Source: Pleomorphomonas sp. PLEO (GTDB lineage: Bacteria; Pseudomonadota; Alphaproteobacteria; Rhizobiales; Pleomorphomonadaceae). From it: a DNA stretch of 64,000 bases. How positions within the stretch are numbered: position 1 is the first letter of the stretch; each line of letters begins with the position of its first letter. The position numbers and the translations under genes are program-made. A model generated the notes under the pieces. The model did not search any database and was not told the DNA's origin. It was given only the letters and a program-made list of their open reading frames with translations. Location: NCBI RefSeq assembly GCF_041320595.1, contig NZ_CP166625.1, positions 2,726,001-2,790,000 of the forward strand, given 5' to 3'. Positions 47,385-60,324 of this stretch are shown here, piece after piece.

Positions 47385-50039
<2,655 letters not shown>

Positions 50040-50064
50040 TCCGTCCGCGTAGCACGAACAAATT

Positions 50065-50103
50065 CGCTCGTCCGAGCGTTGGCTCGGGCGGGCGTTTGCT
50101 TTT
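50065..50103 (+). terminator. Terminator of alaS
   Basis: 13-bp stem (CGCTCGTCCGAGC / GCTCGGGCGGGCG, with G-U pairs), GTTG loop, then TTTGCTTTT. Confidence 0.85.
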
Positions 50104-50115
50104 GGGACGGCGCCT

Positions 50116-50730
50116 TCAGATCTGTTCGATCTTGCGGGCGGTATCGTCGAGCAACTCCGCCAGCGCGTCGATCTGGCTGGCCGTCAGCGTGGCGCTTTGC
50201 GTCTTCAGGCGAAGAGCAAGGCGCATGTTTTCGACGGCGCGGATAAGGCGGGGGTCGCGCTCCGGCCGGCGGTCCGAGCCTGCTTCGGCGAAGCGAGCGA
50301 GGACGGCGTCGATAGCGGCGCGGTTTTCCTCCACGGTGGCGCGGCCGGCCTCAGTGGCGGCGTAGAGCTTTTTGTTGCCCTCCGAACTCACGACCTCGAT
50401 CAGGCCCGTCTCTTCAAGCAGAGTCAGCGTCGGATAGATGACTCCGGCGCTCGGCGCATAGGCGCCGCCGGTGCGCTCCTCGATCTCCTTGATGATCTCA
50501 TAGCCGTGGCGGGGCTGTTCGGCGATCAGCGCCAGTACGACAAGGCGCAGTACGCCATTGTCGAAGAAGCGGCCGCGACCGAACGGGCCGCCACGCTGAC
50601 CGGGGCCATGGCGTTCGGGGCGCTCGCCCCGCTCACCCCAAAGCGGGCGGCCGAATGGACCGCGGCCGCCGGCAGCCCGGGGGTCGTCATGATCATGGAA
50701 ATCGTGGGGAAAGTGGAACTTATGGTGCAT
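50116..50730 (-). CDS. PadR-family transcriptional regulator with His-rich N-terminus
   Basis: 204 residues. The winged-helix PadR core starts at 'FDNGVLRLVVLALIAEQPRHGYEIIKEIEE' (about residue 56; key features LRLVVLALI and HGYEI), followed by 'GVIYPTLTLLEETGLI' and a C-terminal helical dimerisation part. The first about 55 residues are rich in His, Gly, Arg and Pro ('HHKFHFPHDFHDHDD'), so metal sensing or binding is conceivable. Such regulators usually repress their own gene, and an inverted repeat lies just upstream of this start. No obvious target operon is adjacent. Confidence 0.88.
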   Translation of the reverse strand: MHHKFHFPHDFHDHDDPRAAGGRGPFGRPLWGERGERPERHGPGQRGGPFGRGRFFDNGVLRLVVLALIAEQPRHGYEIIKEIEERTGGAYAPSAGVIYPTLTLLEETGLIEVVSSEGNKKLYAATEAGRATVEENRAAIDAVLARFAEAGSDRRPERDPRLIRAVENMRLALRLKTQSATLTASQIDALAELLDDTARKIEQI

Positions 50731-50756
50731 GAATAACTCCTGTTTCGTTTTGATGT

Positions 50757-50785
50757 AATTAGATATATCGAAAATGAATCTAATT
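50757..50785. promoter_or_regulatory. Inverted repeat operator of the PadR gene
   Basis: AATTAGAT-N13-ATCTAATT, a perfect 8-bp dyad centred about 40 bp before the PadR start. A related TCTAATC...TAATT stands near 50853. The 307-bp gap up to 51037 is AT-rich and contains no supported gene. Autoregulation is the likely role. Confidence 0.6.
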
Positions 50786-51037
50786 TCAAGTGGCCAGTGC
50801 CGATCGCGTCTAAGGCGCGCGCGGAATTTTGGTCTCTCCGAGTATCTAATCTGGACTAATTGACTGTAATAAAATGATATTTTGTCATATTCACGAATCC
50901 GTGTCCTGCGACGCTTGGTATGAACAAAGTTGTTTGCCTGGAATGGCCATAGGGATCGGCTATATCTAAACCGAGTTTTTGGATGGCAAGCCGCTGGCTA
51001 TGCGGCTGCGCCTGCCTGGTGAAAGGGGGATCTGGAA

Positions 51038-51523
51038 GTGACCTTCGACGCAGACATCGTTATCGGCGAGATGACCGGCGAGGAGCGCGAGATGGTGATC
51101 GCGCTCTGGTCGCGGTGTGGTTTGACGCGACCTTGGAACGACCCCGAGGCCGATGTGACGCTCGTTGAGACAACGGAGACCGCCACCATTCTTGTGGCGC
51201 GGGCAGGGGGACGCATCGTCGGAGCCGCGATGACGGGGCATGACGGCCATCGGGGCGCTCTTTATTATCTTGGGGTCGATCCCGATCAGCGTCGAGGCGG
51301 TGTCGGCCGTGCGTTGGTGCGGGCGGCCGAGGACTGGTGTCGGTCGCGGGGGGCTCCGAAGGTCAATCTTCTGGTTCGCAGCGAGAATCAGGCTGTTCTC
51401 GCCTTTTATGCGGCGCTTGGCTATTTGCCGACCAACAGCATCTCACTTTATCGCACGCTCGATTCGGAACGCGCCGAGTGGGAGCGGGCGCAGAAGGAGG
51501 CCTGGGCGGCGGCGCATGATTGA
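51038..51523 (+). CDS. GNAT-family N-acetyltransferase (YpeA-like)
   Basis: 161 residues. The acetyl-CoA-binding segment 'LGVDPDQRRGGVGRALVRAA' (Q/R-x-x-G-x-G/A) and 'NQAVLAFYAALGY' are GNAT hallmarks. The N-terminal 'LWSRCGLTRPWNDPEADV' resembles YpeA-type enzymes; the substrate is unknown. GTG start with GGGGG about 8 bases upstream. It is divergent from the PadR gene, beyond the AT-rich gap. Confidence 0.87.
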   Translation: MTFDADIVIGEMTGEEREMVIALWSRCGLTRPWNDPEADVTLVETTETATILVARAGGRIVGAAMTGHDGHRGALYYLGVDPDQRRGGVGRALVRAAEDWCRSRGAPKVNLLVRSENQAVLAFYAALGYLPTNSISLYRTLDSERAEWERAQKEAWAAAHD

Positions 51524-51816
51524 TTGCTGACGATCACTTGCCTAATTGTCCGGAGGCGTAGCGACTAAAGTCTAACTGGGGCGATGTTCTTGCCGAAACG
51601 CGGAACAAAGCGGGCTATTTAACGCTAGGATAGAAACTCTGGCGAACATTTCTACGAAAGTTGTGCACGCTTCACGTGATACTACGACTAAGTAGAAATA
51701 GACTGCGTCGTAAATTTTAAACATGATAGCTTCGTGATAGAATTTAACCGCAGCCTGAATGGTTCGCTCTGATCCCGCGGCGGGGGATGGCGATCTCAAG
51801 TATCGGAGGCCGATAC

Positions 51817-52077
51817 ATGCTTGCGCTCGAGGTGGTACTGGTGCTGGTTGTGGCCGGCCTGGTGGTTGGTACGCAATTTCGGGTGTTTGCCATGGCGCCG
51901 CTGGCGCTTGCGGCCTGTGTGTGTGCTTTTTTGGAAGCCATGACCATTGGTGCGTCCGGACCGCGCATTGCCTTGCATATTGCCGAGGCGGCGATTTTCT
52001 TTGAGATCGCTTATGCTCTGGGGGCTATGCTGGTCTATGTGAGGCTGCCGTTTCTTCCGGTACGGCCCCGCGCCTGA
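51817..52077 (+). CDS. Small hypothetical membrane protein
   Basis: 86 residues, very hydrophobic, with three likely membrane helices ('ALEVVLVLVVAGLVVG', 'FAMAPLALAACVCAFLEAMT', 'IALHIAEAAIFFEIAYALGA') and a short basic tail. I do not recognise a family. GGAGG stands 7 bases before the ATG at 51817; an ATG at 51787 lacks a ribosome site. The 293 bp upstream (51524-51816) is AT-rich with no gene seen. Confidence 0.65.
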   Translation: MLALEVVLVLVVAGLVVGTQFRVFAMAPLALAACVCAFLEAMTIGASGPRIALHIAEAAIFFEIAYALGAMLVYVRLPFLPVRPRA

Positions 52078-52192
52078 GCAGCGTCGCTTGAGTACCATCT
52101 CATTGTGAGCTGGTTTTTTGGTGAAGATGCTGACAAAATTTGGCAGCAGCGCGTCGTAAGCATGCTCATCGCAAAGATGCGAGGAGATGCTG

Positions 52193-52561
52193 ATGTTTAC
52201 GCCTACCTACTACCTGCTGCATGTCGCCGATCCCGCCAAGAGCGCCGGCTTCTACACCGAGCTGTTTGGCCGGCCTCCGGTCGAGACTTCCCCCACGTTC
52301 GCGCTGTTCGTTCTGGGTGGGGGCATCAAGGTCGGCCTATGGTCCAAAGCCACCGTCGAGCCAGCCACCGGAGGGGCGCCGGGCGCGCTTGAGATCGGCA
52401 TCGCTCTCGCGGCGCCCGCCGATGTCGATGCCTTCCATGAGAACTGGGTTGCGCGCGGTCTGCCGGTATTCCAATCGCCCACCGACATGGATTTTGGTCG
52501 TAGCTCCATGGTGACCGATCCGGATGGGCATCGCATCCGCGTCTTCGCCACAACTGGCTGA
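52193..52561 (+). CDS. VOC-family (glyoxalase-like) protein
   Basis: 122 residues of the vicinal-oxygen-chelate fold: N-terminal 'YLLHVADPAKSAGFYTELFG', C-terminal 'MVTDPDGHRIRVFA'. These small proteins are often dioxygenase-like, resistance-related or of unknown role. Catalysis cannot be assigned. The ATG at 52193 has GAGGAG 6 bases upstream, and the ATG at 52187 is too close to it. Confidence 0.85.
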   Translation: MFTPTYYLLHVADPAKSAGFYTELFGRPPVETSPTFALFVLGGGIKVGLWSKATVEPATGGAPGALEIGIALAAPADVDAFHENWVARGLPVFQSPTDMDFGRSSMVTDPDGHRIRVFATTG

Positions 52562-52574
52562 CCGGGATCTGAAT

Positions 52575-52599
52575 GCCCGCCGGTTGCGCTCCGGCGGGC
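52575..52599. terminator. Hairpin between convergent VOC and YegP-like genes
   Basis: Perfect 9-bp stem GCCCGCCGG / CCGGCGGGC, 7-base loop; no clear T-run. Confidence 0.6.
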
Positions 52600-52616
52600 T
52601 CATCATGTTACGGGGA

Positions 52617-52793
52617 TCAGCTGTTATCCTCGGTGGGCGCCGTCGGGCCATTTTTCTTGATCGACTCGATGGCATTGATCGCCGAGGCCTTGGTTTTGTA
52701 GCCCTCAGTCCAGAAGATGGTTTCGCCGTTATATTTGAAATAGGCGACGTATTCGTCGGCCTTATTCTTCTTGATCTCGAACTTGTGCGCCAT
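52617..52793 (-). CDS. YegP-family small protein (DUF1508)
   Basis: 58 residues: 'FEIKKNKADEYVAYFKYNGE' with 'YKTKASAINAIESIKKN' is one DUF1508 repeat of the YegP family; E. coli YegP has two. The function is unknown. GGAGGGGA lies upstream of the ATG at 52793. Confidence 0.85.
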   Translation of the reverse strand: MAHKFEIKKNKADEYVAYFKYNGETIFWTEGYKTKASAINAIESIKKNGPTAPTEDNS

Positions 52794-52950
52794 GTTTTCC
52801 CCTCCGTTTGGCCCTTTGTCCGCAAAAATGGCGGCTGGGGCTTGGAAATATAGGGCGGAGCTGCCGGATACACGCGACGTCGTCGGAGGTATCAGAGCCA
52901 TTTCCGCCCGTCGTAAAGGTATTGACGGATGGGCAGGCTGTCATTGGTCT

Positions 52951-54570
52951 TCAAGTATAAGGTAGTCGCTGATCCTCATTGAATAAGTCTGGTAGTTCGG
53001 GCTCTGGCCGTTCGCGGGGAGGGGCGTCCTGTGCGGCATGCTTTGAGAGAAGCCGTCGGTCGCTTCCGGCGATGTGATGGGCGCACATCTCGAAAGCGAT
53101 GAATTGCACGAGCGCCTCCAGCGGTAGCGCATCGCTTTGAAAGCGTTCGGTGAGGAAGGATAGACGGGCGATCAGCTCCAGGTGTTCGGAACGATGCTTT
53201 TGAAGACCGGCCGGGCTGATCTCCGCGATGGCGATCTCTTCCCGAACGAAATGGTGGCGCATGTGGAAGGCGATTTCGTTGAGGTCCTGGGTGATCGTTA
53301 CCTTGTCGCCCGTCGTCTTGACAGTGCGCAGCAGCCGGTTAGAGCGCTCGACGAGTTCGATATGATCGGCGTCGAGTTCCGGTATCGCCGTTTCGAACAG
53401 GGGAGACCATTGGATGACAGATGTCCCATCCTCCCACTTGATCGGGATGTCATGACACACTTGGTTCTTGCCCGCTGCCTTGGCGCGATAAAGCGCCGCG
53501 TCTGCGCGGTCAAACCAGCTTTTCCAGCTGTCATGGCTGAGACAGAGCGACACGCCGATGCTGACGGTGATCCGCAGCGGGCTGCCGGTGTTCGTCGTGC
53601 TCGTCGCATCGCACAGCCGTTCGGCAAGAAGCTGCGCCTCCCGCACGCCGGTGCCCGGCAAGATGATGGCGAACTCCTCTCCGCCCCAGCGGCCCAGGAT
53701 ATCGGTGTCCCTCAGGATCTTGCGCCAGGACTTAGTGACGGCCTGCAAGACTACGTCGCCCGCCGCGTGGCCGAGGGAGTCGTTGAAGCTCTTGAAGTCG
53801 TCAAGGTCGAGGATCAGCAGCGAAGCCAACGTGCCGTGGCGAACGAGCCGGTGGATTTCGCCGTCTCCAACCTGTTCCAGTTTCCGCCGATTCCAAACGC
53901 CGGTGAGCTTGTCGTGGAGGATCATCTGCTGATTGAGGTGCTCGGTGCGCTCCTTGTTCATCAGCAGGAAGCCGACCGTGATCAGCGTCACGCCGATGAG
54001 GGTGGCTATAAAGAGAAGGGCTTGCGCCAATTCGCTCAGCGTAACCGCGCCAAAGGCCTGGAGCGATAGAAGCGCTGTGACTTCGCGATAGAGCATCATT
54101 GTCATGCTGAGCAAAATCGCGGCCATGAACAAATACTGGCCCTTGCCCGATGTTGTCCTCCGTCTCATCCAGAGATGCTGCAAGACGACGGCTTCGGCGA
54201 GAACGTAGATCAGGCTGTTGCAGATGATCCTGATCGGCCGCTGGTCGAGAAGCAGGAAGGTCACCAGGGCGATCGAGCCGACGAACAGCAGATGCTGCTT
54301 CCAGCGCCTTGCCCTGCCGAAAAAGATCTCGAGGGATTGGATGACGAAAGAAAAGAACAGGGCCACAGAGAGCTCGGCAAACCAGACGGACCAGGGGCCA
54401 AGTTTTGGCGACAGGACATATAAGGCATAGGCCACGCTGTGGGCGATCAGACCGTAGGAAAACTCTTGAAGCCCCCACTTCAGCTCTGTCGTCTGGGTAA
54501 CAAGAATCGCCCCGCCAAGAGTTAGGCTGAGAACCGATATCAAGACGAACACGGTGGGAATATCAATCAT
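52951..54570 (-). CDS. Diguanylate cyclase fused to bacteriohemerythrin
   Basis: 539 residues. About six membrane helices (1-205) form an N-terminal sensor. The GGDEF domain (about 215-370) keeps the active motif GGEEF at 296-300 and an RxxD inhibitory site at 287-290 (RDTD). The C-terminal domain (about 390-505) is a bacteriohemerythrin with all expected di-iron ligands at canonical spacing: H403, H440-E444, H458-H462, H499-D504. It should make c-di-GMP in response to O2 (or NO) bound at the iron centre. No adjacent partner gene; upstream is the icd duplication region. Confidence 0.92.
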   Translation of the reverse strand: MIDIPTVFVLISVLSLTLGGAILVTQTTELKWGLQEFSYGLIAHSVAYALYVLSPKLGPWSVWFAELSVALFFSFVIQSLEIFFGRARRWKQHLLFVGSIALVTFLLLDQRPIRIICNSLIYVLAEAVVLQHLWMRRRTTSGKGQYLFMAAILLSMTMMLYREVTALLSLQAFGAVTLSELAQALLFIATLIGVTLITVGFLLMNKERTEHLNQQMILHDKLTGVWNRRKLEQVGDGEIHRLVRHGTLASLLILDLDDFKSFNDSLGHAAGDVVLQAVTKSWRKILRDTDILGRWGGEEFAIILPGTGVREAQLLAERLCDATSTTNTGSPLRITVSIGVSLCLSHDSWKSWFDRADAALYRAKAAGKNQVCHDIPIKWEDGTSVIQWSPLFETAIPELDADHIELVERSNRLLRTVKTTGDKVTITQDLNEIAFHMRHHFVREEIAIAEISPAGLQKHRSEHLELIARLSFLTERFQSDALPLEALVQFIAFEMCAHHIAGSDRRLLSKHAAQDAPPRERPEPELPDLFNEDQRLPYT

Positions 54571-54990
54571 ATCGTCCAGGAGCGCTGGAGTGGTCGACGA
54601 GCGGTAGCGCTCGTGTAATGCCGCTGGACCGAGTCAAGCCGACGTAGCCCATGGAAACTTGAGCCTAGCCGTTGATAGAACATTACAAAGGTGAACAAAG
54701 CCCTATTTGCGACTGACGCTACGCGTTATTGTCTATCGAGCTGATCATTTCTGTTACCTTTATCGGGTGCTTCGTTATTGGCTGCCAACGGTCTTTTTTG
54801 ACTACCAACCCAAACAACGATCTCTTTTGGTCTTCTGAAATTGTGAAACAAACATGAGGTATCCGATATCGAGGGCATGTTGAAATGCCAGCGCATCGGT
54901 CTCCATTTCGCGGCGCTCAAGAGTGTTCTTTCGGCCGCGCTAGATTACCCACTGAATAAAGCTGAGTCCGCTTTGCAGTTTTGCCGATGC
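54571..54990. other. Intergenic region, 420 bp
   Basis: Upstream of the diguanylate cyclase, less GC-rich than surrounding DNA. I see no supported gene, tRNA or integrase remnant. A 64-residue minus-strand frame at 54726-54920 lacks a ribosome site and recognisable content. Confidence 0.4.
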
Positions 54991-55024
54991 AATAAAGGCG
55001 GCGGACCGTTGCCGATCCGCCGCC
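54991..55024 (-). terminator. Terminator after the displaced icd 3' end
   Basis: On the minus strand a 9-bp stem (GGCGGCGGA / TCCGCCGCC) followed by TTTATT. It is a diverged copy of the one that follows intact icd at 56247-56280. Confidence 0.8.
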
Positions 55025-55050
55025 CTATTGTTTCGTCCTTGACCGGCTGA

Positions 55051-55207
55051 TTACCACTTGGCCATTTCAGCTTCGAGGTTGGACGCAACCTTCTCGAGGA
55101 AGCCGGTCGTGGAGAGCCACTTCTGATCCGGCCCGATCAGCAGGGCGAGGTCCTTGGTCATGAAGCCGCTTTCCACGGTGTCGACGCAGACCTTCTCCAA
55201 CGTGGCG
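55051..55207 (-). pseudogene. Displaced copy of the icd 3' end (last 51 codons and stop)
   Basis: 157 bp aligned without gaps to 56307-56463, the end of icd, with 6 differences, all synonymous; the encoded 51 residues are identical. Homology continues downstream through the terminator at lower identity but stops upstream at 55207, so there is no start or catalytic domain. The coding match with only silent changes, next to a more diverged non-coding flank, indicates two icd alleles from related lineages rather than a fresh local copy. This is the pattern left when an element integrates in the icd 3' end. Confidence 0.88.
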
Positions 55208-55275
55208 AGGCCGCAGCAGGATGGTGGTTGACCCCGGACGGGCACCGCCTCCGCATCTTCGCCGTTACGGCCTGA
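55208..55275 (+). pseudogene. Remnant of a VOC-family gene 3' end
   Basis: The plus strand reads 'LTPDGHRLRIFAVTA' then a stop, the C-terminal beta-strand motif of VOC proteins (compare 'TDPDGHRIRVFATTG' in the gene at 52193). It abuts the displaced icd end and has no 5' part. It is probably debris from recombination at this junction. Short, so moderately sure. Confidence 0.55.
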
Positions 55276-55349
55276 CGATCGGTTCGGGCGCTCGTCGGTT
55301 TCGGTCCGGCGGGCTGCCGATTTGCCGGAAGTCAGCCGTATCATTCACT

Positions 55350-55982
55350 TCATTCGAAGTAGTTGCTTGCGTAGTTGCTTATTTCTATAAATAGTCTAGC
55401 ATTTTTGGCAACCCCAATGTATCTTGAATGATAACCATTGAATATTGGTTCGAACGGCTGGTCATCACTAACCACCTTATCAATAGATGACTTATTATTT
55501 ATTTTCGAGATTTCTAATATTAGACGTAATGTACCATATTTCCAGGCATAAATGACATCATAGTTCTCTGTATATTCCTTCTTACAGCCTCTATTTACGC
55601 ACTCAGAATTGTGCGCCGTACAGATAGACATTTGAGTATTATTGATTGGAATATCTAAATTCTTCCTGGTAATAAATTTTATGAACTCGTTACTAATACG
55701 GCAAGAACTCCCCCTACACGAAACTAGTTCAGATTCAAAGCCCAGGCGCCTCTCAAGAGAACTCTCGACAAGCCTGACGATGTCTTCGTTTTCTGGGCGT
55801 ATATAATAATTTCTCGGGTATCTGGCGATCACAACATCAATCGCATCATTCGGAGGCGGCGTGCATGACCAACTGTCGGCGAACGAAAAATCAGCCCACA
55901 AAAAAGAGCAGACGAAAATAAAGGCCATTATAAGCTTGGGGGATTTGGCTTTTTGCCGAAATTTATTGCGAACGTAGCTCAT
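55350..55982 (-). CDS. Hypothetical secreted cysteine-containing protein (AT-rich)
   Basis: About 210 residues from the ATG at 55982 (GGAGG about 5 bases upstream). Signal peptide with hydrophobic core 'LIMAFIFVCSFLWADFSFA' followed by 'DSWSC'. The mature part has six Cys (in 'WSC', 'VSC', 'SSC', 'SIC', 'SEC', 'RGC'), enough for three disulfides, many Asn/Ile/Tyr, and no family I recognise. Base composition is far lower in GC than the neighbours and codon use is A/T-ending, indicating acquisition. It lies between the two icd 3' ends. Confidence 0.7.
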   Translation of the reverse strand: MSYVRNKFRQKAKSPKLIMAFIFVCSFLWADFSFADSWSCTPPPNDAIDVVIARYPRNYYIRPENEDIVRLVESSLERRLGFESELVSCRGSSCRISNEFIKFITRKNLDIPINNTQMSICTAHNSECVNRGCKKEYTENYDVIYAWKYGTLRLILEISKINNKSSIDKVVSDDQPFEPIFNGYHSRYIGVAKNARLFIEISNYASNYFE

Positions 55983-56246
55983 AAGCCCCTCCAATGAACT
56001 GTGCGTCCGAAGCTCTCTTGAGCCTGTCCGTCGCCTTGAGATTCGATCCAGTCGTGACATGCCCAAAAGTGGGGCTGGCGCTTATTGTGCATGTCAAAAG
56101 TTGTCGAGTACAACTAGAAACATATCTACGTGACACGAAAATCATCCCCTGGTCGCATTGTGTCGCACTAGCGCACAATCTGGCCCTCCGAACTTCGAGC
56201 CCCATAGGCTTCTGTGGGCCCTGCTGGGCTATGGCTCGTCTATCAA
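55983..56246. other. AT-rich spacer between the secreted-protein gene and icd
   Basis: No gene supported. An inverted repeat ATTGTG-N11-CACAAT stands at 56157-56179. This DNA, with 55350-55982, forms the low-GC part of the segment bounded by the two icd ends. Confidence 0.4.
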
Positions 56247-56280
56247 TCAAAAGGCGGCGAACCGTTGCTGATCCGCCGCC
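56247..56280 (-). terminator. Terminator of icd
   Basis: On the minus strand stem GGCGGCG / CGCCGCC followed by TTTTGATTGA; same layout as at 54991. Confidence 0.8.
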
Positions 56281-56306
56281 TTATAATTTCATCGATGATT
56301 ACAGGC

Positions 56307-57524
56307 TTACCACTTGGCCATTTCGGCTTCGAGGTTGGACGCAACCTTCTCGAGGAAGCCGGTGGTGGAGAGCCACTTCTGGTCCGGCCCGATCAACAGG
56401 GCGAGGTCCTTGGTCATGAAACCGCTTTCCACGGTGTCGACGCAGACCTTCTCCAGCGTGGCGGCGAACTTGGCCAGGTCGGCGTTGTCGTCGAGCTTGG
56501 CGCGGTGGGCGAGGCCACGCGTCCAGGCGAAGATGGAGGCGATGGAGTTGGTCGAGGTCTCCTTGCCCTTCTGATGCTCGCGATAGTGACGGGTGACGGT
56601 GCCGTGGGCGGCTTCGGCCTCCACTGTCTTGCCGTCCGGCGTCAGCAGCACGGAGGTCATCAGACCAAGCGAGCCGAAGCCCTGGGCCACGGTGTCGGAC
56701 TGCACGTCGCCATCGTAGTTCTTGCAGGCCCAGATATAGCCGCCCGACCACTTCAGCGCCGAGGCGACCATGTCGTCGATCAGGCGATGCTCGTAGGTGA
56801 TGCCGAGCTTTTCGAATTCGGCCTTGAACTCGGCCTCGTACACCTCCTGGAAAATATCCTTGAAGCGACCGTCATAGGCCTTGAGGATGGTGTTCTTGGT
56901 CGAAAGATAGACTGGCCATTTGCGCATGATGCCGTAGTTGAGGGAGGCGCGGGCAAACTCGCGGATCGATTCATCGAGGTTGTACATGGCGAGCGCCACG
57001 CCGGCGCCGGGGGCCTTGTACACTTCCTTCTCGATCACCGCGCCGTCTTCGCCGACGAACTTGATGGTGAGCGTGCCTTTGCCCGGGAACTTGAAGTCGG
57101 TGGCCTTGTACTGGTCGCCGAAGGCATGACGGCCGACGACGATCGGCTGCGTCCAGCCGGGTACGAGGCGCGGCACGTTCTTGCAGATGATCGGTTCGCG
57201 GAAGATAACGCCGCCGAGGATGTTGCGGATGGTGCCGTTGGGCGACTTCCACATTTCCTTGAGGTTGAATTCCTTCACGCGCGCTTCGTCGGGCGTGATG
57301 GTGGCGCACTTGATGCCGACGCCGTGCTTCTTGATGGCGTTGGCGGCGTCGACCGTCACCTTATCGGCCGTGGCGTCGCGGTTCTCGACCGAAAGGTCAT
57401 AATAATCAATGTCGATATCTAGATAGGGCAGGATCAGCTTGTCCTTGATCAACTGCCAGATGATCCGGGTCATCTCGTCGCCGTCGAGATCGACGACCGG
57501 GTTCGCAACCTTGATTTTCGCCAT
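56307..57524 (-). CDS. icd: NADP-dependent isocitrate dehydrogenase
   Basis: 405 residues of the eukaryote-like (IDH1/2-type) group common in alphaproteobacteria: '[20 protein letters not shown]', '[19 protein letters not shown]', '[20 protein letters not shown]' and '[19 protein letters not shown]'. It converts isocitrate to 2-oxoglutarate with NADPH in the TCA cycle. The start at 57524 gives normal length; a longer open frame upstream is low-complexity Arg/Ala. The last 52 codons are repeated at 55051-55207. Confidence 0.97.
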
Positions 57525-57682
57525 AGTGGGGTGACCTTCCGAACGTGTGGCCGGGCTTTGAGGCCGGTTCGTGCGCCTGCCGGTACGCAAACGCACGGAT
57601 GTTTCGCCTGTAGCATGGCGTTGCCGCCGAGGCCAGTGCAACCGCTTGGCTTTTGGGCGTACGCTAACGTAAACGGAAGGTG

Positions 57683-58432
57683 TCAGGAAGGGAGCGTGAC
57701 GACGAGCGGCCCGTTTCGCGTTGCGACGATGGTATGCTCGAACTGCACGGTCGGTGCGCGCGGCTCTGAGTACAGCGTCCAATCGTCGTCGCCATCCTCG
57801 GCCCATTCGGCGCCGAGCGACAGAAAGGGCTCGACGGTGAAGACGAGACCGTCGGTGATGACGCGCCGCTCGTGCGGGTTGGGCCATGTGGCGATGTCCG
57901 ACGGCTCTTCATGCAGCGAGCGGCCAACGCCATGGCTGCCGAGATTGCGCACCAACGTGTAGCCGTTCTTGCGGGCAAACGCGCCGACAGCACGGCCGAC
58001 ACCTGCAAGTGGCCGTCCGGGTGCGACGGCGCCGATGCCGGCCCACATGGCCCGCCGGCCGTCGCGGCACAGCCGGTCGAGCTTGGCGGGAACAGGCGAG
58101 ACGGCAAAGGAAGCGCCGCTGTCGGCGAAGAAACCGTCCTTGGAGGCGGAAACGTCGAGATTGATGAGGTCTCCGACTTTCAGCACCCGGTCGCCGGGGA
58201 TGCCGTGGGCGATCTCCTCGCTGACCGAGATGCAGGCGATGCCGGGGAAGCCGTAGGTCGCCTTCGGCGCGGGTATGGCGCCGGCCTCGTCGAGGACGCG
58301 GCCGGCGATTTCGTCGAGTTCGGCTGTGGTGATGCCGGGTCGGACGGCGGTGGCCATGGCGGCGATGGCATCGGCCACGGCGCGGCCGATTGCCTTGAGC
58401 CCGTCGAGCTCGTCTTCGCTGGTGATGGTCAT
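57683..58432 (-). CDS. map: Methionine aminopeptidase, type I
   Basis: 249 residues. Metal ligands are seen in 'INLDVS' (Asp), 'FFADSGASF' (Asp), '[10 protein letters not shown]' (His), 'FTVEPF' (Glu) and 'QFEHTIV' (Glu), and '[10 protein letters not shown]' holds the substrate-binding His. It removes the initiator Met from nascent proteins. Alone between icd and the FMN reductase on the same strand. It may be an accessory copy, since many genomes carry two. Confidence 0.93.
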
Positions 58433-58461
58433 GTCGTCTCCTTACGGCGCTCAGCGCGGTG

Positions 58462-59013
58462 TTATTTGTTTCTGCCGATCCAGGTAGCGAAGGCGGTGAG
58501 GAAGCCGCCCAGGAAGGACTTGGTGTCCTCGCTCACGAACTTGCCATCCTTATCTAGGAGATCTCCCACCTTGGAAATATAGGCTTCAGGCTGCTGCATG
58601 ACTGGCATGTCGAGGAAGACAAGCGGCTGGCGCAGGTGATGGTTGGCGCCAAAGGCGCCCAGATTGCCCGGCGAAACGCTGACGATGGCGGTGGGTTTGC
58701 CCTTCCAGGCGCTCTTGCCATAGGGGCGGGAGCCGATGTCGATGGCGTTCTTCAGAAGGCCGGGGATCGACCGATTGTATTCGGGCGTCACGAACAGCAC
58801 GGCGTCCGCGCTGACGACTTCGCTCCGGAACTTCGCCCAGGTAGCCGGCGGCGAGCCCTCATCGAGATCCGGGTTGTAGAGCGGCAGTTCGCCGATCTCC
58901 ACGATGCGGAGTTTCAGCTTATCGGTGGCAAGCGTTGCGAGGTTGTCGGCCACCGCCCGGGAGAAGGATCCCTTGCGCAGACTGCCAACGAGAACCGCGA
59001 CATCATAGGCCAT
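58462..59013 (-). CDS. NADPH-dependent FMN reductase
   Basis: 183 residues of the flavodoxin-like FMN_red family: 'VAVLVGSLRKGSFSRAVADN' (phosphate-binding loop), 'VLFVTPEYNRSIPGLLKNAI' and 'IVSVSPGNLGAFGANHHLR'. Quinone, azo or chromate reduction is known for relatives. ATG at 59013 with GAGGAG upstream; the upstream extension is not conserved. 29 bp before map on the same strand. Confidence 0.92.
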   Translation of the reverse strand: MAYDVAVLVGSLRKGSFSRAVADNLATLATDKLKLRIVEIGELPLYNPDLDEGSPPATWAKFRSEVVSADAVLFVTPEYNRSIPGLLKNAIDIGSRPYGKSAWKGKPTAIVSVSPGNLGAFGANHHLRQPLVFLDMPVMQQPEAYISKVGDLLDKDGKFVSEDTKSFLGGFLTAFATWIGRNK

Positions 59014-59242
59014 GCTTTTCTCCTCTGCCGACGAGAGCGGCGGTCGCCGCGCTCCGTCCCAACGCCGTCGACCCAGGGTTGGGCGACGGATTGTCCTCAC
59101 GTTTATAGGGGATTTCTCGGAGGACTGTCCATGTAGGACAACGTCGCGTTTGGTGGTTCTGTGGCATTAAAATTTCCTGATATTTGGTTATATGTCAGGA
59201 AATCGTATTGATAAATCGCCATTTGTAAGTAATTATTGCGGT

Positions 59243-59692
59243 ATGGATGAAATCGATCGTCAAATCGTGATGTGCCTCGGCCAGGATGCGCGCCGCTCGC
59301 TCGCCGATATCGGTGGCGAGGTCGGTCTGTCGACGTCGGCGGTGAACGAGCGCATCCGCCGCCTCACGGCGAGCGGCGTGATCCGCCGCTTCACCATCGA
59401 CGCCGACGCCGAGGCGCTGGGCTTCGCCGTCACCGCCTTCGTGTTCGTCGGCCTCGCCCCCGATGCCGACGAGACGGCGTTCCGGGCGGTTGCTACTGAG
59501 CATCCCGCCATCGTCGAGTGCCAGCACATCACCGGCAGTTGGAACTATCTGATCAAGATCCGCGTGGCGTCGCTGGCCGGCATCGAGACTTTTCTCGATG
59601 ATTTCAAGCGGCAACGGCTGATTGCCCGCAGCGAGACGATGATCGCGCTGTCGACCGTCGTCGAGCCACCATTCAAACCTCGGGAGCGATGA
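59243..59692 (+). CDS. Lrp/AsnC-family transcriptional regulator
   Basis: 149 residues: N-terminal helix-turn-helix ('MDEIDRQIVMCLGQDARRSL', 'VGLSTSAVNERIRRLTASGV'), then the RAM ligand-binding domain. The start at 59243 matches the usual Lrp N-terminus; a start at 59192 would add unconserved residues. It overlaps the LysE-type exporter by 4 bp, so the regulator probably controls that gene in response to an amino acid. Confidence 0.92.
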   Translation: MDEIDRQIVMCLGQDARRSLADIGGEVGLSTSAVNERIRRLTASGVIRRFTIDADAEALGFAVTAFVFVGLAPDADETAFRAVATEHPAIVECQHITGSWNYLIKIRVASLAGIETFLDDFKRQRLIARSETMIALSTVVEPPFKPRER

Positions 59693-60324
59693 CCGTGAGT
59701 TTGCTGCTCTTTGCCGCCAAGGGCTTTGCCCTCGGCTTCGCCGTGGCCGCGCCGCTCGGACCGATCGGGGCGCTCTGCATCAACCGCACGCTGCAACGCG
59801 GCTTCTGGGTGGGGCTCTCCGGCGGGCTCGGAACGGCGCTCGCCGATGCCTTCTATGGCGCCCTGGCGGCGCTTGGCTTTGCCGCCTTTTCGGCCTTTCT
59901 CGCCGGGATCGATGGCCCCATGCGCCTCATTGGCGGCGTCGCGATGATCTGGTTCGGCTGGCAGGGGATGAAGCCGAAGCCGCCACGGCAGGCCGCCGAG
60001 ATCGGCGCCCGCGATCTCCTGGGCACCGTGGGCGCTACGTTTCTGCTGACCATAGCCAACCCGACGACCATTTTGTCCTTCGCCTTGTTCTTTGCCGGGC
60101 TGGGCCTTGCCTCGACGGCCGATGCCCCATCGACGCTGGTGGTGGTGGCCGGCGTGTTTGCCGGTTCGCTCGCCTGGTGGATCATCCTGACGGGCGGCGT
60201 GGCGCTGGTGCGTCATAAGGTCAGCGATCGCTTTTCGCTGTGGGTCGGGCGGCTGTCCGGCGGCCTGATCCTCGCCTTCGGACTGTTGGCGGTGGGATCT
60301 TTCATCGCCGGACTGTGGCGCTAA
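59689..60324 (+). CDS. LysE-family amino-acid exporter
   Basis: 211 residues, six membrane helices. 'GFALGFAVAAPLGPIGALCI' is the LysE/RhtB signature region, and 'FLLTIANPTTILSFALFF' is a second conserved block. It expels an amino acid; which one is unknown. Translationally coupled to the Lrp gene. Its stop overlaps the 3' end of the convergent LysR gene by 4 bp. Confidence 0.9.
   Translation: MTVSLLLFAAKGFALGFAVAAPLGPIGALCINRTLQRGFWVGLSGGLGTALADAFYGALAALGFAAFSAFLAGIDGPMRLIGGVAMIWFGWQGMKPKPPRQAAEIGARDLLGTVGATFLLTIANPTTILSFALFFAGLGLASTADAPSTLVVVAGVFAGSLAWWIILTGGVALVRHKVSDRFSLWVGRLSGGLILAFGLLAVGSFIAGLWR

What the first reader, a model, noticed from the sequence alone, without database searches (positions are those of the whole stretch)
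54991..56463. Duplicated 3' end of icd brackets an AT-rich segment: integration-site scar
55051-55207 and 56307-56463 align over 157 bp without gaps; the 6 differences are all silent and 51 residues are identical. The terminator is also duplicated but more diverged. This pattern means two separately evolved icd ends were brought together, as when an element carrying its own icd 3' end inserts there (E. coli e14 and phage 21 use icd). The 1,256-bp unit holds a VOC gene remnant and a low-GC secreted-protein gene, but no integrase that I can see. It may be a remnant or a very small element using integrase in trans.
Basis: partly seen in the sequence, partly recalled or inferred. Interest (0 to 1): 0.8.

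Follow-up and report, generated by a model that had tools for sequence, protein, structure and literature searches.

The report
Foreign allele stitched beside icd gene
A short stretch of neighbouring chromosome from a related Pleomorphomonas lineage appears to have been added in tandem next to the icd gene, leaving a duplicated gene end and one unknown secreted-protein gene; it looks like an ordinary recombination scar rather than a new kind of mobile element.

Summary
55051-55207 repeats the last 157 bp of icd (56307-56463); the copies differ at 6 sites, all silent, while the adjoining terminators are only 74% alike. The integrase reading is not supported. In 13 same-genus genomes (Pleomorphomonas, by contig-length match) VOC - variable interval - icd is conserved and icd is single. 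The 1,256-bp insert reads: native icd 3' end | 3' end of a second VOC gene | AT-rich secreted-protein gene | GNAT-gene remnant | terminator and icd. The VOC fragment is 88% identical to the P. oryzae VOC end but 66% to this genome's own VOC; grouping the latter two is rejected (AU p 0.0003). VOC is icd's usual neighbour in the genus, so the insert is best read as another lineage's VOC-icd interval, added in tandem through homology in icd and one illegitimate joint at 55207/55209. No PF00589 or PF00239 recombinase match lies within 600 kb; two icd ends occur in 2 of 357 order genomes with a match, one being this one. The secreted protein has one detected homolog and no known family. The donor arrangement and the recombination route are inferred. 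Modest interest.

The parts
52187..52561 (+). this genome's own VOC (glyoxalase-family) gene, in its conserved place
   Evidence: Pfam Glyoxalase E 1.7e-11; found upstream of icd in 13 of 13 same-genus loci
52617..52901 (-). DUF1508 gene, native content of the VOC-icd interval
   Evidence: Pfam; present in 11 of 13 same-genus loci
52951..54570 (-). GGDEF gene (weak hemerythrin match in its tail), native content of the VOC-icd interval
   Evidence: Pfam GGDEF E 4.4e-41; in 4 of 13 same-genus loci
54994..55050 (.). icd terminator region, copy 1
   Evidence: repeat D1; 73.7% to copy 2
55051..55207 (-). icd 3' end, copy 1 (last 51 codons plus stop), read as the native end from its position
55207..55209 (.). 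illegitimate joint: icd homology ends at 55207, VOC homology begins at 55209, one base (55208) matches neither
   Evidence: blastn breakpoints against the relatives, alignment
55209..55339 (+). 3' end of a second, foreign VOC gene with its terminator region; a 1-nt insertion shifts its frame relative to the relatives
   Evidence: 88% to P. oryzae VOC end, 66% to own VOC; AU test p 0.00031
55350..55982 (-). AT-rich gene for a 210-aa protein, predicted by eye to be secreted, of unknown family (ORF open up to 56066)
   Evidence: only homolog found in P. oryzae, 37-38%
55963..56079 (-). remnant of the C-terminal end of a GNAT acetyltransferase gene that overlaps the start of the secreted-protein gene
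   Evidence: 55980-56079 is 90% to G005 and 81% to G004; protein match 76% over 38 residues
56084..56134 (-). weak match to the region upstream of the same GNAT gene; the gene body between is missing
   Evidence: 76% over 51 bp to L044 4453-4403, E 6e-4
56250..56306 (.). icd terminator region, copy 2
56307..57521 (-). complete icd (NADP-dependent isocitrate dehydrogenase, 404 aa); last 157 bp are copy 2
   Evidence: PRK08299 E 6.2e-235; Pfam Iso_dh

Best explanation
The segment is a scar of gene transfer within the genus. A piece of a P. oryzae-like chromosome, [VOC' 3' end - secreted-protein gene - icd' 3' end], entered this genome. It was held on one side by homology in icd and on the other by an illegitimate joint that fuses the native icd 3' end (55207) to the interior of VOC' (55209). 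The result is a tandem partial merodiploid: the native interval (VOC-DUF1508-GGDEF-icd end) stays, and the foreign version of the same interval follows it, keeping icd whole. Either a circularised fragment went in by single crossover, or a linear fragment bridged two sister chromosomes. Shown: the anatomy, the foreign affinity of VOC', the conserved order in relatives, no PF00589 or PF00239 match within 600 kb. Inferred: the donor arrangement VOC'-secr-icd', the vehicle, the direction of transfer and the recombination route.
For: In the 13 same-genus loci VOC precedes icd with a variable interval between, and icd is single. VOC' is 88% to the P. oryzae VOC and pairs with it (support 86/77, not strong); grouping it with own VOC is rejected (p 0.00031). 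The rest of the left flank places this genome with G011 instead (90/87). VOC' homology runs from the joint to the place where DUF1508 ends in P. oryzae (L031 4102 and 4098), so the cargo stands where DUF1508 and GGDEF stand elsewhere. Silent-only icd differences suggest that both ends were recently functional. Precedent in E. coli: 56 of 60 clones from linearised incoming DNA gave the PCR product of a partial duplication of the homologous locus, the 14 sequenced being 109-950 bp, read by the authors as recircularised DNA plus single crossover; 3 of 4 illegitimate-recombination clones had no homology at the joint (PMC3240628). The 214-bp repeat falls in that range.
Against: No genome with VOC-secr-icd order was found (0 of 13), so the donor allele is inferred. 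Copy 1 is not closer to G011 than copy 2 is (93.0 against 94.3%), so which end is native rests on position, not on a tree. icd beyond the repeat shares 6 derived sites with G010 and not G011, and 0 the other way, against 42 and 106 in the left flank (p 7e-4; 1.6e-4 and 2.5e-4 at the other two thresholds): this fits a foreign tract running into icd rather than a crossover confined to the repeat, or icd may have its own history, as G010 and G011 are 96.3% alike there. No Ku gene for end joining was found and no PF09343 gene (taken as a GTA marker from recall).
Confidence: 0.72

Rival explanations
1. Tandem duplication first: an ancestor with VOC'-secr-icd duplicated [VOC' 3' ... icd 3'], and later the left unit was overwritten by homologous exchange with DNA carrying VOC-DUF1508-GGDEF-icd end from another lineage.
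For: The joint icd|VOC' has the form of a tandem-duplication joint, with the spacing (1256) as unit length; icd shares derived sites with P. oryzae rather than G011.
Against: Needs two events. G011-shared derived sites exceed P. oryzae-shared ones in all four stretches of the left flank (33:12, 25:11, 28:7, 20:12 at the 60% threshold), though least in the stretch with VOC, and over the 5' part of VOC no relative stands out. The right flank (57683-60324) shows no P. oryzae excess over G003 (43 against 45).
Confidence: 0.16
2. Remnant or tiny site-specific element that uses the icd 3' end as attachment site, moved by an integrase in trans.
For: 157 bp of icd carried, near the 163 bp at E. coli e14 (PMC6379469, passages); icd is kept whole; 7 identical bases lie at the boundary before the first difference.
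Against: The insert begins with the end of icd's own neighbour gene; no PF00589 or PF00239 match within 600 kb (other recombinase families were not searched); no occupied icd site in 13 relatives; two icd ends in only 2 of 357 order genomes with a match; icd far below the cut-off of the prok_nadp_idh model.
Confidence: 0.07
3. In-place duplication of this genome's own DNA followed by drift.
For: Adjacent direct copies.
Against: The VOC end is 88% to another species and 66% to own VOC and grouping the two own ends is rejected; terminators 26% apart while coding copies differ only silently.
Confidence: 0.03

Closest known systems
Single-crossover integration of recircularised linear DNA, and homology-facilitated illegitimate recombination (PMC3240628; abstract, introduction and one results section read)
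   Same: Short duplication of the homologous locus, a joint without homology, no integrase
   Different: Seen there with selected plasmids in E. coli; here inferred from one natural genome, and the foreign DNA is the same chromosomal interval from a relative
Transformation-made merodiploids of Streptococcus pneumoniae (PMC3784515; abstract and section list seen)
   Same: Tandem duplication set off by incoming DNA that pairs with the chromosome
   Different: Those are about 100-900 kb and use repeats; here about 1.3 kb with an illegitimate joint
e14 and phage 21 at E. coli icd (e14 from passages of PMC6379469; phage 21 recalled)
   Same: About 160 bp of icd 3' end duplicated, host gene kept whole
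   Different: Here no integrase and no phage genes in the insert, chromosomal neighbour DNA inside, a different IDH model family

Membership tests
icd-integrating element (e14-like) | integrase gene carried beside the attachment site | tested here: not met
   ORFs of the insert show none (read by eye; Pfam on the secreted protein and the fused ORF); own-genome PF00589 (7 matches) and PF00239 (3 matches), none within 600 kb
icd-integrating element (e14-like) | duplicated icd 3' end with icd kept whole | tested here: met
icd-integrating element (e14-like) | element DNA unrelated to the host locus | tested here: not met
   the VOC end is the neighbouring gene's homolog
icd-integrating element (e14-like) | occupied and empty sites among relatives | tested here: not met
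   13 of 13 same-genus genomes have one icd end; 2 of 357 order genomes with a match show two
icd-integrating element (e14-like) | excises as a circle | not testable with these tools
   needs PCR or reads
recombination scar from a relative's DNA | foreign affinity of the inserted allele against the genome background | tested here: met
recombination scar from a relative's DNA | one side homologous, one side an illegitimate joint | tested here: met
recombination scar from a relative's DNA | donor allele known | tested here: not met
   0 of 13 same-genus loci carry VOC-secr-icd
recombination scar from a relative's DNA | foreign tract continues into icd | tested here: inconclusive
   derived-site sharing

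The most novel reading that the evidence does not exclude
The VOC-icd interval is a cargo-swapping locus of Pleomorphomonas in which homologous exchange between conserved flanks keeps replacing one set of genes by another, and this genome caught two alternative alleles side by side, including an orphan secreted protein paired with a GNAT-gene relic related to one that sits next to a type I secretion-like transporter gene in a relative.
Probability: 0.25. Interest if true: 0.45.

Novelty: new member of a known kind. Interest (0 to 1): 0.3.

Why it matters
It suggests that a duplicated gene end with silent-only differences, easily taken as an attachment-site signature, can come from homologous exchange with a relative's chromosome. 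Checking whether the DNA at the far end is the gene's own neighbour separates the two. It also points to an interval of variable gene content beside a core metabolic gene.

Tried and rejected
Integrase element: recombinase searches (PF00589, PF00239 only) and occupied-site searches negative. Identity of the secreted protein: no hit in Pfam, NCBIfam, PADLOC or PHROGs; PDB by sequence gave only 4 chance-level matches, best E 0.1; none in plasmids, phages, viral contigs or named genome contigs; 2 of 397 order genomes, this one and P. oryzae. One search also listed G005 (3 of 20 family genomes), but that match covers residues 3-36 of the longer ORF, the stretch that overlaps the GNAT relic, not the secreted protein. 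The AlphaFold model was too poor to search (mean pLDDT 38), so no fold search was run. No tRNA in the window; no Rfam match in 50000-60000. Promoter-like sites at chance, terminator-like sites 4 against 2.1 expected. Ku absent by PF02735 and PF09343 absent; a ComEC-type gene is present (PF03772), which does not show competence. Derived-site tests of a donor tract gave mixed results; the stretches, thresholds and comparison genomes were chosen after seeing the data, and G011 and G012 lack the 5' part of icd and what lies beyond it. Paper searches gave listings; no paper on this locus was looked for beyond them.

Full report
Observation. The repeat is real and as described: 214 ungapped bases, 54994-55207 and 56250-56463, 1,256 bp apart. 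The coding parts differ at six sites, all silent; the terminators are 73.7% alike. Compared with 11 relatives, copy 1 carries the minority base at four of the six sites and copy 2 at two. The two copies are thus about as far apart as icd ends of different species (copies 96.2%, own copy 2 against P. oryzae 95.5%). This does not look like a decayed duplicate.

Setting. The genome is a single 5.48-Mb contig. Its same-genus genomes include contigs whose lengths equal those of named Pleomorphomonas records; the genus and species names used here rest on that match alone, and the window's own species is not known. In the 13 same-genus loci examined, VOC lies upstream of icd with a variable interval between, and each of the 13 genomes has one icd C-terminal match. 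The G011 and G012 contigs end inside icd, the G001 stretch that I took begins in the left flank, and in G007 and G008 some flanking genes were not found in the stretch fetched. Of two genomes from outside the genus also examined (G014, G037), neither showed VOC in the stretch fetched, so the neighbourhood is a genus feature. From the coordinates the interval is roughly 0.5 to 4.2 kb. It holds DUF1508 in 11 of 13, GGDEF in 4 of 13, a chemotaxis-receptor-like ORF in G001 and a ParA-like ORF in G007; the last two labels are from reading the ORFs, not from a family search. None of the 13 holds the secreted-protein gene there.

Anatomy of the insert. Reading rightward from the native GGDEF gene: terminator and icd 3' end; a joint at 55207/55209; the end of a VOC gene and its terminator region (55209-55339); the secreted-protein gene on the minus strand (55350-55982); a GNAT C-terminal relic that overlaps its start (55963-56079) and a weak match to the region upstream of that GNAT gene (56084-56134); then terminator and complete icd. 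In one search the icd-side alignments of the 13 same-genus loci stop at 55205-55207 in 12 and at 55204 in one. A VOC-side alignment was found in 10 of the 13 and starts at 55209 in 8 of those. Base 55208 fits neither copy 2 of icd nor the P. oryzae VOC, so no microhomology is visible, though the true donor sequence is unknown.

Origin. Over the fragment, VOC' is 88% identical to the P. oryzae VOC end and 66% to this genome's own VOC; own VOC is nearest G011 at 77%. VOC' and the P. oryzae VOC form a pair (86/77, not strongly supported), and holding VOC' with own VOC is rejected (AU p 0.00031; 12 rows, 136 columns). The genome background is nearer G011 and G003: 88% and 88% against 86% for P. 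oryzae over the longest matches in an 11-kb stretch; in the left-flank tree own pairs with G011 (90/87). So the fragment looks foreign to this lineage and local to the genus.

Does the foreign tract reach into icd? Derived sites shared with P. oryzae and not G003, and the reverse, are 21 and 6 in 56250-57682, but 116 and 97 in the flanks (Fisher p 0.023). Against G011, icd beyond the repeat gives 6 and 0, the left flank 42 and 106 (p 7e-4 at the 60% threshold, 1.6e-4 and 2.5e-4 at 50 and 75%). This leans towards a foreign tract entering icd. It is not clean: over 56464-56813 this genome is 94.0% to P. oryzae, 93.1% to G011 and 93.4% to G003, while P. oryzae and G011 are 96.3% alike, so icd may have been exchanged elsewhere in the genus. 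Copy 1, which position marks as native, shows no G011 affinity. The tests were made after seeing the data.

Mechanism. The simplest account is a fragment of a relative's chromosome, homologous in icd, joined illegitimately at its other end. In E. coli, 56 of 60 clones from linearised incoming DNA gave the PCR product of a partial duplication of the homologous locus, the 14 sequenced being 109-950 bp, explained by recircularisation and single crossover; 3 of 4 illegitimate-recombination clones had no homology at the joint (PMC3240628). The introduction of the same paper says that in naturally competent species 3 to 10 bp of microhomology is found in most cases, which is not seen here. Pneumococcal transformation makes merodiploids by interchromatid integration (PMC3784515, abstract). 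The first route puts the crossover inside the repeat; the second allows a longer foreign tract in icd. The data do not choose firmly. The genome has a ComEC-type gene, no Ku by PF02735 and no PF09343 match (taken as a gene-transfer-agent marker from recall).

Why not an integrase element. The nearest PF00589 match lies about 610 kb away (3392655 against 2782600 in genome coordinates); the three PF00239 matches are farther. Other recombinase or transposase families were not searched. Of 397 genomes in the order, 357 have an icd C-terminal match and, by my reading of the listing, only this genome and G160 (61% complete) have two; one genome per species was examined. The icd is a PRK08299-type IDH that scores 26.7 bits against a cut-off of 567.3 for prok_nadp_idh (that the latter is the E. 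coli type is recalled). The near coincidence with the 163-bp e14 duplication (PMC6379469, passages) is noted but is only an analogy.

Cargo. The secreted protein (210 aa from the internal ATG; N-terminal hydrophobic stretch and several cysteines, by eye) has one homolog at 37-38%, in P. oryzae at another locus. It matches no family in the libraries tried. The GNAT relic resembles genes in G005 and G004 that are followed, with overlap, by AT-rich genes. In G005 the neighbour is an ABC transporter with a peptidase C39-like domain, which I read as type I secretion; the similar ORF in G004 was matched by eye only. The protein's function is unknown; a role as an exported accessory or immunity-like protein is a guess.

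Verdict. Real, and best explained as an intragenus recombination scar; modest interest. The integrase reading is unlikely but not formally excluded without more strains.

Noticed in passing
L044:4557-5598 and L045:1444-2914: A GNAT gene next to an ABC transporter gene (type I secretion-like in L044; by eye in L045) is followed, with overlapping ends, by different AT-rich secreted-type genes in two relatives; the relic in the window shows the same overlap with its own AT-rich gene.
   Followed up: partly
L045:309-1475: ORF with sub-threshold HINT / pretoxin-HINT matches and a LysM domain near the GNAT gene in G004, possibly part of a polymorphic-toxin-like locus.
   Followed up: no
window 54571-54993: About 420 bp between the GGDEF gene and icd copy 1 matches only 2 of 13 same-genus loci, weakly and in part (54571-54990), and is lower in GC (49.6%) than the window.
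   Followed up: no
L042:5379-6754 (G007) and L040:3866-5560 (G001): The VOC-icd interval holds other cargo in relatives: a ParA-like ORF set and a chemotaxis-receptor-like ORF, by reading of the ORFs.
   Followed up: partly
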